NCBI GenBank assembly: GCA_015499995.1
Contig: JADNRV010000020.1
Coordinates: forward strand, 372,001 to 436,000
Length of the DNA: 64,000 nt
From: Flammula alnicola
Taxonomy: Eukaryota > Basidiomycota > Agaricomycetes > Agaricales > Strophariaceae
Direction of reading: 5' to 3'
Shown here: positions 5,605 through 54,557 of the stretch, one piece after another
Numbering within the stretch: position 1 is the first letter of the stretch
Layout of the letters: the number at the start of each line of letters is the position of its first letter
The notes under the pieces: model-generated
What the model saw: only the letters and a program-made list of their open reading frames with translations
What the model was told of the DNA's origin: nothing
Database searches by the model: none
Translations under genes and position numbers: made by a program

Positions 5605-7641
5605 TTAACCGGAATGCTCTACGATAGTCGTCACAAGCTTTCCATTCTGAACGACCGTCTTGAACATCTCGGGCACAGGCTGCTCCTCAAAGATCCCATC
5701 CTCCTCGCCCTCGACGGGCAAGTGAATGTTGATGGCGCTGCATTTCGCGGTGGTGACTTCGGTGCTGAGACTGTCCTTCGAGAGGTAAATCTGCCCAGCG
5801 TCGGTCGAATCGAGTTGGATCATGGGCGCGGTACCGGTGATCTGTAGTTGGAACGAAGGCGAGGCGGTGACCGAAACGGATGACACAACGGAATGAACGA
5901 GTACAGCAGTTTTCGTGCTATTGACTAGATAGAGCGTGAGGGCGTGTCAGTGAACAGTATCCATCACAGAATTAAAGACAAACACGTACTGATATTCACA
6001 GCGTTGACCTTTCCTTTGATCAAAACGGTAGCGCCCTTGCAACCAAAGATGTTAACGGACTGGCTGATCCCCACATCCTCAACGGTTATGGTCTCATTCT
6101 CTTGGAATTCCTTGATGGCGCCACGGTCAGCGACGCATGTAAAGCAAGGACGGAAAACTTACAATCAACCACTTGTTACCATCCAACACAAACTTAGCAG
6201 GCTTCTTGCCTGCGAGTGCATGAGGTTTGGAAGGCTTGATTGGCTTCTTACCGACTGTCAATTCAACAATTTTGAATACGCTGCAGCAGAAACAAGAAGC
6301 GGCAGTACTTACCAGAAGGACTCGAAGTTGACGCTGGAACGACACTGCTTGCCCTCAGTGCTGGGTTCTTGTGGGTCATCTCGCTCTTGTCGACTTTGCG
6401 TAAGCCTTTTGTGACTTCTTCGCCGCGGTTTAGTTCTGCGAAAACAGCGGCAGCTCCTCCTGCAGGGGCAGCAGCTGGGGTCTGAGGTGGAGGAGGCGGA
6501 GGAGGAGGCGGAGGAGCACCACCACCGCTGGTAGCACTTCCTGAGGACCTATACTGTCCTACAGTGACACCCTTTGAGGTCCGATATTAGGCCCAAGATG
6601 AAGATGGACTGAGAATATAACGTACTTGGGATTCCAGGCAAGACCACTAGCGTGATATTCCTTGATGTAGGCCTGCATTTCGTCGAGGATGGCCACATAC
6701 GCATTGACCCATTCTGCGTGTTTGGGATTCCTGATCCACCATTCAACAATTAATGAGACCTAGAAGATCACAAGGGCGCACTTTTCCTTGAATTCTTTCT
6801 TCACCTTATTTCCGTAGTATACCACTGAATCCTTGAGATCGACCACGAATCCTTGGGGTTTGGGCTGATCATCCGCAACCATTAGTCGAGGCAGCGTTGT
6901 ATCATACACCTCATCGAACTCACATTAACAACCCAACCGATGATTGGAGCACCTTCTCCTAGGATGGTGAGATGGGAGAACCAATCCCGATCGCGTCTGT
7001 TGGCTTCCTTGGCGCGCGAAACGGCCTCGATGGCTTCAGGGAAGGATGACAGGATAGACTCCAACGTTTTCTGATCTGGCTTCTGGCATGACGCAACCAC
7101 TTTCAAGAAGTCTCCGAGGATATCGAATTCTTTTTGAACCAAGGAGACCTAAAGTATACAGGGGTCAGGGATAGATGTGAAAGACGACGATGGCTATTGA
7201 ATACAGTTGACGTACGGCTTCTATCACATTGGGACCTGCGAAACCCTTGGTCAATTCGACGAAAGGCTTAAGCTTTCCATCGATAACCTGTTCTCGGAAC
7301 GCAAGTACGCTCTTCGGTGTCTCAGCAGCGACAACTGTTGTTGCTGGTGCAGCAGTCGCAGCCGCGACATGGGGTGGTGGGGGCGGCGGTGGGGGTGGGG
7401 GCGAATACGAGGTCGAAGCATCATGGTCAGGTCCTTCTAATTGTCTGCGAGCTTCATATGCAAGTCGATTTTCGGTTGTTGGGTCGAGAACGACTGCAAT
7501 ATCCTCGAAGCGCGAAGCCGCTGCCTCGAGGCTTCAACGAGATGATGAGTTCGAAACTACTGGTTAGATGCTGTCAGTGACATACCGCTTGATTATGGTA
7601 GCAAGAGAGTGGAGTCCACTTGAGTTCACGGTGGTCATCAT
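5605..7641 (-). CDS. cap1: Adenylyl cyclase-associated protein (CAP / Srv2)
   Basis: Cytoplasmic actin-recycling protein that severs and recharges cofilin-bound actin and, in fungi, links Ras to adenylyl cyclase. Nine exons on the minus strand (7586-7641, 7216-7531, 6924-7148, 6782-6864, 6626-6730, 6313-6548, 6163-6254, 5990-6110, 5605-5924), 517 aa, normal for the family. Start MMTTVNSSGLHSLATIIKRLEAA; the second ATG would do as well. An N-terminal oligomerisation helix is followed by a first polyproline tract (about 60-72), the helical folded domain (SHLTILGEGAPIIGWV, EWVNAYVAILDEM), a second polyproline run (about 275-285), a WH2-like segment (GLRKVDKSEMTHKNPALR) and the C-terminal beta-helix CARP domain (FVLDGNKWLIEFQEN, VNIFGCKGATVLIKG). 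The fifth intron (6549-6625) must end at TATAG; nearer AG sites put in a stop. Confidence 0.95.
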
Positions 7642-7885: not shown

Positions 7886-9116
7886 TTAACTTGCGAATTC
7901 AGCAGCTTTCATCTCGTCTTCCAGAGAATTCTTCTGTTCACTCTTCTTCGCCTTCTTCTTCGCCTTCTTTCTGCGTTGTCGCTCGCGTTCTCGTTGCTTG
8001 GCTGCCTTCATCTCTTCTTTCGACAGACCCGGGTTAGCCAGCTTGTCAAGCTAGGGCCCATCACACATGTTAACTTGTTTGGAAAATATCAGGAAAAAGG
8101 GAACACAAGACACGCCTTCTCCAAGAGCCATCTTCGGGCTAACTTTCTGTTCTGTGAAAGAGAGCGCGTGTCCTGACAAGATACACGGATGCCAGTTGGC
8201 TTGTGGAGCAATTGCACATTGTTTTCAGTTTTATTGATTGATTGACCTCCCTAACATAATTGTTACTAGGACACCGTCTAGGAACTATGAATGAACATAC
8301 CGGCCCACTCCCTAGAATGTCCCGCACAGTTAATACCGTCTAACATTGTTTACAGCAAGCGTACCTCGAACAAAACTCTCTTCTAAGTCCTCTTCCCGCA
8401 GTTCCGGTATCACACGTTCCTTGTGGGCTTTCTTGAGAGAAGGAAAGTTTCGAGGAGGAGCAGCGGGTGTCAGAGAGGTGGGTGCTTGTCGAGCTTCAGC
8501 TTGAACAGCACCTAACCATGAACTGGTTCAATGTTTCTTTCAAACTTTTGTAAGAGCAATATTAATACGCACTTATGAGGCTGCTCTTTCCCTTTCCGAC
8601 GCACGCTACGACTTGACTCCACAGGAGGAGGATTCTTCACCGAATCATTATCACCAAGTTCGGTGTCCTTTGTGAAACGTATGCCTTCAAGTAACGCAGT
8701 GAGTGGAGGTGACATATATAGCAGTGGTTGGGACTTACGATACACTCCATCGCCCCCAGATTCCTCTGGTGCTTTGACTCTCGTACCCTGGACCACATTT
8801 CGCCTCAAAACATCCGCAACTTCCCGAATAAATTGCGTTTGCTTCTGGTAAGCTTCGGGATCTGTAGCAGTATCTTGAGAGATGTCGGATCGTATTTTTG
8901 TGCGGAAGGCTGTATTGAGGGTAAGTTCTAGAAGACACGTCATCCAGCATGAGCAAAATGACCTTGGAGGACTGGTCGGTCGCCTGAGAGATATCGTTCA
9001 GGTTTAGCCGCTGAGGAAAGTATGCAGGGCTTACCAGCAAATGTTACCGAAGCCGCTCTGAGCACATCTCTATACGCTGAACGAGTAGCAGCCTTGAGAG
9101 CAGGGGAGATGGACAT
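7886..9116 (-). CDS. mzm1: Fusion of complex III assembly factor MZM1 (LYR family) and a mitochondrial GGQ release-factor-like domain
   Basis: Seven exons (9035-9116, 8739-8927, 8573-8684, 8365-8522, 8301-8311, 8116-8250, 7886-8050) keep one frame of 283 aa. Residues 1-127 match MZM1/LYRM7, the matrix chaperone of the Rieske protein: [49 protein letters not shown]. Residues 128-283 match the peptidyl-release domain of MTRFR/C12orf65 and yeast Rso55: [17 protein letters not shown] with GGQ at 185-187, then a very basic tail ([15 protein letters not shown]). A canonical 50-bp intron joins the halves, and the second half has no ATG of its own before the tail. Either a true fusion, as known for other pairs of mitochondrial proteins in fission yeast, or a read-through model. 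The intron at 8051-8115 appears to use a GC donor. Confidence 0.8.
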
Positions 9117-9597: not shown

Positions 9598-10866
9598 ATG
9601 TCCGCTGCGAAAAAAGCCATTACCACCAAGCCGACCGCCAAGAAAGCCGCTGCCTCTAAGGCTGCCCCAACTCATCCGACATGGGTCGATATGATCAAGG
9701 TCAGTCAGCGCTCAGCGCATATCCTACCGCATCTCCGGCGCTCTTTTGTCCGCAGTACTGGTTGCTGTCTATTTTCTCCGCCCTTCGCCATCGCTGTGTG
9801 CCCAAAAAGGCAGGGCAGAGGGCAAAGTGTCCGTGCGCATATCCTTGTGTAGCTCGCTGCTCCTCATCGCACTTCATGCGACGCTCCCTGCTTTCTTGCT
9901 CTTATCTCGTTGCATTCTATCTGCCGTCGGCGGCATGCTGACAATGCTGTGACCTCGTGTAGGAATGTATTGCTGCCAACACTGAGGACGCTCGCATTGG
10001 AGTCTCACGCCCACAAATCAAGAAGTATGTTGCGTTTCATGGAAAACCTGTTGCATACCGCTTATGCTTCTACAGATACGTCGAGACCAAGTATAAACTC
10101 GAAATTGGAGCTGCTCAGACCACCCAATTGTCCAAAGCTATCACCTCCGGTGCTGATAAGGGCGTCTTTGTCCTTCCCAAGGGTATGTACTCTCCTATAA
10201 AATAGTACGGCATCTCGTCTAACGATTCTATCTGCGTTAGGACCTTCCGGCAGAGTCAAGCTCGCCCCTAAATCTAAGCCAGCCGACACTTCGGCGAAGG
10301 AGGTACATTCGATTTGTTACCTTTCTTTGCAATCTGTCTCATACATTGACCTAGAACAAACCCGCCGCTAAGCCCAAGGCCCCTGCTGCGAAACCCAAGG
10401 CGGCTAAGCCATCGAGTGCCAAACCCAAGGCTGCTACCAAGGCCACCACCAAGACCGCCGCTGCGCCGAAGAAGGCTGCCACTAAACCCAAAGTCGCCGC
10501 CGTCAAGAAGCCCGCACCCAAAAAAGTAGTCGCCGGTAAACCCAAGGCCAAGGCTGCCACCACGAAGAAGACTACCACTGCCAGCAAGCGGACGCCAGCA
10601 AAGAAGGTCTGTCCATGTGTTTCGTTATTATTGGACCATTTGTATTTATTTTTGCGTTCGCGCATAGGCTGTCACTGGAACAACGCCTGCCTCTAAGGCT
10701 AAGGCCGCTGCGAAGAAGGCACCAGCCAAGAAGGCCGCTGCTGCGAAGAAGGAGATAGCTAAGCCTGCAGTAAAGGCCCCCAGGAAGCAGGTCGGTGGAC
10801 CTTCCATTGTTTTTGCGTTCAATGCTGATGTTAGGACTTTCTTTTTAGCCCACCAAGCGATCATAA
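9598..10866 (+). CDS. hho1: Linker histone H1
   Basis: Binds linker DNA at the nucleosome entry-exit site. Exons: 9598-9699, 9963-10024, 10076-10182, 10241-10302, 10355-10606, 10668-10790, 10849-10866, total 241 aa. Short basic N-tail (MSAAKKAITTKPTAKKAA), one globular H15 winged-helix domain at about 27-100 (PTHPTWVDMIKECIAANTEDARIGVSRPQIKKYVE...KLEIG...QLSKAITSGADKGVFVLPKG), then a long Lys/Ala/Pro tail built of AKPKA and KKAPAKKAAA units. Having seven exons suggests a polyadenylated, basal linker histone and not an intron-poor replication-type gene. The first intron is long (263 bp) for this window. Confidence 0.95.
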
Positions 10867-54461: not shown

Positions 54462-54557
54462 CTGCCCCAGTGAGGATTGAACTCACGACCTTCCGATTTT
54501 AGCTTAGCCACAGACGGCTTAACAGTCGGACGCTGTAACCAGCTCAGCCATGGGGCA
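54462..54557 (-). tRNA. tRNA-Asn(GTT) with a 22-nt intron
   Basis: Minus strand. Acceptor TGCCCCA pairs with TGGGGCA; D-stem GCTG/CAGC; anticodon stem TCCGA/TCGGA; loop CTGTTA-A interrupted after position 37 by 22 nt; T-arm GTGAG-TTCAATC-CTCAC; discriminator G. Anticodon GTT = Asn. T-runs follow as Pol III terminator. The first base is U, unusual for a nuclear tRNA-Asn, so a recently altered copy is possible. Confidence 0.8.

What the first reader, a model, noticed from the sequence alone, without database searches (positions are those of the whole stretch)
7886..9116. MZM1 and a GGQ release-factor domain encoded as one mitochondrial protein
A 50-bp canonical intron (8523-8572) joins the LYR-type complex III assembly factor to an MTRFR/Rso55-like GGQ domain in frame. 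The second half has no ATG of its own before its basic tail, and the frame upstream of it closes with a stop. Both parts act in the mitochondrial matrix, so one import signal and possibly internal processing would serve both. This links respiratory-complex assembly to ribosome rescue in one transcript.
Basis: partly seen in the sequence, partly recalled or inferred. Interest (0 to 1): 0.8.

Follow-up and report, generated by a model that had tools for sequence, protein, structure and literature searches.

The report
One gene: MZM1 or MZM1-GGQ fusion
A mushroom gene seems able, by choosing between two splice sites 11 bases apart, to make either a small respiratory-complex assembly protein or the same protein carrying a mitochondrial ribosome-rescue domain; databases record only the joined form.

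Summary
The same MZM1/RF-1 join is annotated in other Agaricomycetes: 117 of the 120 listed hits (of 475) carry RF-1.

But a second acceptor (B) 11 nt downstream (intron 8512-8572) gives a 133-aa MZM1 ending KCCSS-stop. That double-cysteine tail is the usual MZM1 end: 8 of 9 non-mushroom relatives have it, and a spliced mushroom relative ends ECCST. In annotated fusions the linker keeps residues that allow this stop in the other frame (70 of 86; background 42.5%).

Best reading: a two-in-one gene, where acceptor B makes MZM1 and acceptor A makes MZM1-GGQ. B is well supported. A is inferred: its AG lies exactly 11 nt from B in 14 of 15 placeable models, GGQ has no ATG of its own, and no second MTRFR gene was found. 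No RNA showing A was seen; exon-4 skipping or +1 frameshifting remain possible.

The parts
9035..9116 (-). exon 1 (82 nt): start codon, first LYR-type helix with the A14-Y15-R16 motif (9069-9077)
8963..8983 (-). exon 2 (21 nt)
8739..8909 (-). exon 3 (171 nt): rest of the LYR helical bundle
8573..8684 (-). exon 4 (112 nt): TELGDND motif and basic tail of MZM1
8523..8572 (-). junction intron with acceptor A (50 nt): gives the MZM1-GGQ fusion, 284 aa
8512..8572 (-). junction intron with acceptor B (61 nt): gives MZM1 alone, 133 aa
8526..8531 (-). TTGAAC, branch-point-like, 15 nt before the end of B and 4 nt before the end of A
   Evidence: branch-point rule recalled
8496..8510 (-). CCSS-stop (TGC TGT TCA AGC TGA): end of MZM1 when acceptor B is used
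8365..8522 (-). exon 5 (158 nt from A; 147 nt from B): linker and start of the RF-1 domain in the GGQ frame
8301..8311 (-). 11-nt micro-exon coding the GSGP before GGQ
8116..8250 (-). exon 7: GGQ codons at 8242-8250 and most of the RF-1 domain
8051..8115 (-). GC-AG intron (65 nt)
7886..8050 (-). exon 8: basic C-terminal extension and stop of the GGQ frame

Best explanation
A two-in-one gene with tandem acceptors at the junction intron. Splicing to acceptor B (8512) gives the ordinary complex III assembly factor MZM1 with its usual CC tail and a stop. Splicing to acceptor A, 11 nt upstream (8523), shifts the downstream frame, bypasses that stop and gives MZM1 extended by an MTRFR/Rso55-type GGQ rescue domain. 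MZM1's own import signal would then carry the rescue domain into the matrix, with or without later cleavage in the disordered linker. Shown: both reading routes exist in the DNA, the MZM1 end is conserved, both domains are intact in sequence. Inferred: that A is used in RNA, that it is the minor form, import, processing and function.
For: Exact gene model and class-wide annotation of the join. Acceptor B gives KCCSS-stop; CC is present in 11 of 12 aligned MZM1 rows, 8 of 9 non-mushroom. P0241 has the MZM1 exons joined and ends ECCST; P0247 runs into CCQG-stop, which one base on reads DAVKAE, the linker of annotated fusion P0004. In 70 of 86 linkers where an A/V pair could be placed, the third residue after it is D, E, N, S, R or K, as a stop in the MZM1 frame needs (background 42.5%). 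Branch-point-like motifs in the other six introns lie 12-19 nt from the AG end, as TTGAAC does for B (15 nt). For A: A-B distance 11 nt in 14 and 14 nt in 1 of 15 placeable models out of 121, with unrelated residues between; the GGQ frame has no ATG; PF00472 is otherwise found only in two copies with PCRF.
Against: No RNA with junction A was seen. None of the 120 listed fused proteins has a jgi, lgn or ena source, while 108 of 120 listed GGQ-only proteins do, although the GGQ-only search excluded long proteins by design. A has a poor branch-point distance (4 or 28 nt). The 15 models were all annotated as fusions or, for P0121, as a partial one, which favours frame-keeping distances. Some models reach the fusion by other means, such as P0008, which drops the end of exon 4. 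A shuffle test of the CC-x-x-stop shadow failed a specificity control.
Confidence: 0.52

Rival explanations
1. The fusion by acceptor A is an artefact of gene callers. The mRNA is spliced at B and the GGQ frame is reached another way: exon-4 skipping onto B, a +1 ribosomal frameshift near the CCSS-UGA, or non-AUG initiation.
For: Exon 3, 2 or 1 joined to acceptor B is in the GGQ frame (243, 186 and 179 aa). In P0193, P0157 and P0139 the GGQ frame runs through the MZM1 exon in the shifted frame (z 11.4, 8.0, 7.6; 3 of 69 tested). B has the better branch-point distance.
Against: Among the 120 listed GGQ-only proteins the only one I saw with MZM1 exon-1 sequence is P0166, a database gene model. 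The codons before the shadow stop vary in what they can be, so no constant shift site is apparent. The AG of A keeps its distance in 14 of 15 models.
Confidence: 0.27
2. One reading: one constitutive fusion protein, made from acceptor A only.
For: The annotated model of this species and the same join in other Agaricomycetes. P0081, P0047 and P0097 even keep KCCS inside the fused frame, so some lineages may be constitutive fusions.
Against: The MZM1 tail and stop are conserved in another frame, P0241 ends ECCST, and B fits the branch-point distance.
Confidence: 0.12
3. Two overlapping genes: GGQ has its own transcript and start.
For: Some contig ORFs begin with an ATG at what looks like the 3' end of the junction intron (P0150, P0158, P0159, MFIIS) or in the MZM1 exon (P0139, MIRSK). 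Polycistronic transcripts whose genes are also transcribed alone are common in mushrooms (PMC4503453, abstract and passages).
Against: In this window the GGQ frame has no ATG in the intron-retained form or in the acceptor-B mRNA.
Confidence: 0.07

Closest known systems
SKI7/HBS1 gene of fungi (PMC3597508; abstract in a listing and passages seen)
   Same: One fungal gene, two functional proteins chosen by alternative 3' splice sites of one intron, kept over long times; it also concerns a translation-rescue factor.
   Different: There both sites were shown by RT-PCR and western blot; here only by sequence. There the choice adds or removes internal motifs; here it swaps a stop for a whole second domain.
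Predicted LYRM4-RF-1 (C12orf65) fusions of five insects (PMC4381221, section 10 read)
   Same: An LYR protein in front of a C12orf65-type GGQ domain.
   Different: Another LYR protein (ISD11 type), unreviewed predictions, no splice choice described. The review warns that such tandems may be annotation errors or be cleaved, as S. pombe Rsm22-Cox11 is.
MTRFR / C12orf65 / Rso55 (Pth3)
   Same: RF-1 domain with GGQ, basic C-terminal extension, best solved relatives 7a5h and 2rsm.
   Different: No start or import signal of its own; it hangs on MZM1.
MZM1 / LYRM7
   Same: Whole-length similarity to named Mzm1 proteins, TELGDND and CC tail in isoform B.
   Different: Isoform A replaces the CC tail by a linker and the GGQ domain.

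Membership tests
MTRFR (C12orf65/Rso55/Pth3) | RF-1 domain with GGQ motif | tested here: met
   PF00472 E 8.6e-24; GGQ invariant in the 56 aligned rows
MTRFR (C12orf65/Rso55/Pth3) | No codon-recognition (PCRF) domain | tested here: met
   Pfam scan of P0001 finds RF-1 and no PCRF
MTRFR (C12orf65/Rso55/Pth3) | Basic C-terminal extension | tested here: met
   [17 protein letters not shown], long helix 241-283; feature as described in PMC7940416 (passages)
MTRFR (C12orf65/Rso55/Pth3) | Closer to C12orf65 than to other release factors | tested here: met
   Best solved matches by sequence are C12orf65 of human and mouse, also by Foldseek E-value; by VIA-align several release factors tie
MTRFR (C12orf65/Rso55/Pth3) | Peptidyl-tRNA release on stalled mitoribosomes; matrix location | not testable with these tools
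   needs experiment
MZM1/LYRM7 | Similarity to named Mzm1 proteins | tested here: met
   P0250 Mzm1p of Ascoidea, E 6e-10, 39% over 84%
MZM1/LYRM7 | LYR-family profile or fold | tested here: inconclusive
MZM1/LYRM7 | Double-cysteine C-terminus (observed in relatives here) | tested here: met
   true with acceptor B, not with acceptor A; which acceptor this fungus uses was not tested
MZM1/LYRM7 | Stabilises the Rieske protein before insertion into complex III | not testable with these tools
   needs experiment
Two-protein gene by alternative 3' splice sites (SKI7/HBS1 type) | Both acceptors used in RNA | tested here: inconclusive
   B supported by P0241 of a relative; A not seen in RNA
Two-protein gene by alternative 3' splice sites (SKI7/HBS1 type) | Both acceptors conserved between species | tested here: inconclusive
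   B by the MZM1-end shadow, A by spacing in 15 placeable models; inferred from proteins, no DNA of relatives at hand
Constitutive fusion protein | No stop between the two parts in the mature mRNA | tested here: inconclusive
   holds with acceptor A, fails with acceptor B

The most novel reading that the evidence does not exclude
In mushroom-forming fungi a conserved overlap of two reading frames makes the end of a complex III assembly factor double as the start of a ribosome-rescue extension. The cell sets the ratio of the two matrix proteins by a splice or frame choice, so respiratory-complex assembly and mitoribosome rescue are co-dosed from one start codon.
Probability: 0.33. Interest if true: 0.8.

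Novelty: new variant of a known kind. Interest (0 to 1): 0.6.

Why it matters
If true, it explains a database-wide oddity: hundreds of 'RF-1 domain proteins' with an MZM1 front, and no named Agaricomycete record among the 18 hits of the MZM1-only search. It would give fungi a conserved case where one start codon feeds two mitochondrial proteins, one for building complex III and one for freeing stalled mitoribosomes. It would also correct the annotation of mushroom MZM1, whose double-cysteine end is hidden in these records.

Tried and rejected
Rejected: that the join is a feature of one genome. Rejected for this fungus: an ATG start for GGQ in its own frame. Not adopted: that the linker motif is a protein motif of the fusion; at its last position residues of mixed chemistry share only codon beginnings, which points to the MZM1 stop.

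Weakened by control: the shuffle test of a CC-x-x-stop shadow gave 78 of 120 against a mean of 19.4 and maximum of 31 in 200 shuffles; other spacings gave 21 to 48 of 120. In the opposite shifted frame it gave 4 of 120 (shuffle mean 0.87). But an unrelated MZM1 stretch gave 50 of 120 and the last 60 residues 11 of 120, because related proteins share motifs, so I do not rest on it. The frame test on 69 contig or database proteins was clear for 3. P0122, P0143 and P0149, which I had read by eye as shifted-frame cases (notes), were not significant (z 1.9, 1.9, 0.4). P0204, P0197, P0231, P0202 and P0138 had z 4.5 to 2.5 and were not used; P0204 scored as well in the opposite frame. In-frame (fused) reading was best for P0121, a database model, and higher than chance-like rows for P0224.

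Pfam finds no LYR profile in P0001. An in-frame AG 8 nt before B can be read in P0154, P0197, P0202, P0208 and P0209 (LTS before S.DA), but only in-frame AGs are visible this way, so it is weak.

Papers: Mzm1 with Rso55, 0 papers; LYRM7, C12orf65 and fusion, 7; polycistronic with Agaricomycetes, 18, 12 listed; Rso55, 3; Mzm1 with release factor, 9; mitochondrial zinc maintenance protein with basidiomycete, 1; alternative splicing terms, 242, 10 listed; LYR, RF-1 domain, fungi, gene fusion, at least three terms, 44, 10 listed. In what I saw of these no report of this join in mushrooms appeared; I opened six papers, as passages or one section. One search found none of its six terms in PMC11590231. 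One search gave only antizyme frameshifting for mushrooms. No DNA of other fungi was fetched: the cap for metagenome scans was 0 and I did not try it.

Full report

Not a one-off. The fused model has 475 hits; of the 120 listed, 117 carry PF00472. The three without it (P0041, P0061, P0094) jump from GSGP to the C-terminal part in their models. I think the GC-AG intron behind that exon misleads gene callers, since other models read LLEKAC into it (P0007, P0008, P0009 and others; inference). A search with the MZM1 part alone, which can only find proteins of about 69-220 aa, gave 18 hits; the nine with a species name are not Agaricomycetes. A GGQ-only search gave 316 hits, 120 listed, 12 of them with ncbi or uniref records, among them Rhizoctonia, Ceratobasidium and Rhodotorula. 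Rhizoctonia is in Cantharellales. This hints that the join arose inside Agaricomycetes, but only 120 of 316 were seen and no tree was built.

The missed acceptor. Splicing there gives MZM1 of 133 aa ending EQPHKCCSS-stop. Aligned with 11 relatives, its two cysteines are nearly invariant; of the nine non-mushroom rows eight end CCGG or CCSG with a short tail and only Henningerozyma lacks the pair. P0241, from a jgi contig, has the MZM1 exons joined and ends ECCST. P0247, from a contig with introns retained, runs into LSLRCCQG-stop; one base on, this can read DAVKAE, the linker of annotated fusion P0004. P0016's linker DAAPLD can likewise read CCST-stop, the end of P0241 (my comparison). So the conserved part of the 'fusion linker' looks like the shadow of MZM1's own end.

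How general. In 86 of 120 linkers an A/V-A/V pair could be placed. The third residue after it is D 19, E 17, N 12, S 10, R 7 or K 5, together 70 of 86, where linker composition predicts 42.5%; the first, second and fourth have 19, 15 and 39 of 86. These residues share nothing but codons that can begin GA, AA or AG, as TGA, TAA or TAG in the MZM1 frame needs. The rows are related, so the printed binomial value overstates significance. A looser shuffle test agreed (78 of 120 against mean 19.4) but failed a specificity control (50 of 120 in the MZM1 body). Pleurotus (P0081), Hohenbuehelia (P0047) and Heliocybe (P0097) show KCCS in the fused frame itself and may be true constitutive fusions (not tested).

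Which acceptor. The best-placed branch-point-like motifs in the other six introns lie 12, 12, 13, 15, 18 and 19 nt from the AG end. TTGAAC lies 15 nt from B but 4 from A, and CTTAC lies 28 from A. The motif rule is recalled; the motifs of introns 1 and 6 are imperfect and were added to the pattern after looking. B is thus the expected main site. For A: of 121 proteins, 15 allowed the junction to be placed by pattern; the A-B distance is 11 nt in 14 and 14 nt in one, while the residues between are unrelated (SWL, AFL, VPL, CCA, PPA, FCA), and the base before the last G of B can be A in 15 of 15, as a YAG needs. An unused AG would not be expected to stay. But these are annotated joins, which favours distances that keep frame. 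Against A, none of the 120 listed fused proteins comes from jgi, lgn or ena contigs, while 108 of 120 listed GGQ-only proteins do; that second search excluded proteins over about 194 aa.

How GGQ is made. Its frame has no ATG upstream of the core: in the acceptor-B mRNA it is open for 64 codons back to a stop, in the intron-retained form for 48. The only other PF00472 matches in the 74.4-Mb assembly are on two contigs that also carry PCRF, hence MRF1-like; the search is exon by exon and could miss short pieces. MZM1 is found only here, and the locus is single-copy at DNA level. The GGQ core is invariant at many sites, so it is presumably translated, and from upstream. Acceptor A does this most simply. 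Exon 3 joined to B is also in frame (243 aa), as are exon 2 to B (186 aa) and exon 1 to B, which would put MZM1's first helix as import signal on GGQ (179 aa). A +1 frameshift cannot be excluded. In three of 69 proteins tested the GGQ frame runs through the MZM1 exon in the shifted frame: P0193 z 11.4, P0157 z 8.0, P0139 z 7.6. P0139 and P0157 start with an ATG inside that exon, a route closed in this window.

Comparison with what is known. Two proteins from one fungal gene by alternative 3' splice sites are established for SKI7/HBS1 (PMC3597508, passages). LYR-RF-1 joins were listed as unreviewed predictions for LYRM4 in five insects (PMC4381221, section 10), with the remark that such tandems may be cleaved, as Rsm22-Cox11 is. 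Polycistronic RNAs are common in mushrooms (PMC4503453, abstract and passages). The yeast relative Pth3/Rso55 rescues stalled mitoribosomes (PMC7940416, abstract and passages). In what I saw of the searches there was no report of the MZM1 case. I rate it a new variant of a known kind: likely real and widespread in Agaricomycetes, but resting on sequence logic without RNA.

Noticed in passing
window 8051-8115 (-): A GC-AG intron behind the GGQ exon. Models of relatives read LLEKAC into it or stop there (P0007, P0008, P0009, P0011, P0016), and three Psilocybe/Agrocybe models lack the GGQ exon altogether, probably annotation errors.
   Followed up: partly
window 8301-8311 (-): An 11-nt micro-exon carrying the GSGP just before GGQ; some fused models of relatives lack or distort it.
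   Followed up: partly
related proteins P0150, P0158, P0159, P0148, P0213: GGQ ORFs that begin with an ATG at what looks like the 3' end of the junction intron (MFIIS, MLFCLIS, MLLSLIS), possibly a separate start in some lineages.
   Followed up: no
related proteins P0047, P0081, P0097: KCCS in the fused frame itself, followed directly by the GGQ part: possible constitutive fusions that keep the CC motif.
   Followed up: no
own genome G000, C77:94679-95638 and C111:3043-3999: Two nearly equal-scoring MRF1-like copies (PF00472 and PCRF), perhaps uncollapsed haplotypes of a dikaryon, while the MZM1-GGQ locus is single.
   Followed up: partly
window about 9598-10200 (+): Divergently transcribed gene beginning MSAAKKAITTKPTAKKAAASKAAPTHPTWVDMIK, by eye a linker histone H1 (name recalled, not tested).
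   Followed up: no
window about 6880-7530 (-): Exons with a polyproline run next to the GGQ end, by eye a CAP/Srv2-type protein (name recalled, not tested).
   Followed up: no
window 54462-54557 (-): A tRNA gene with an intron-sized length (96 bases), the only Rfam match of the window at gathering score.
   Followed up: no
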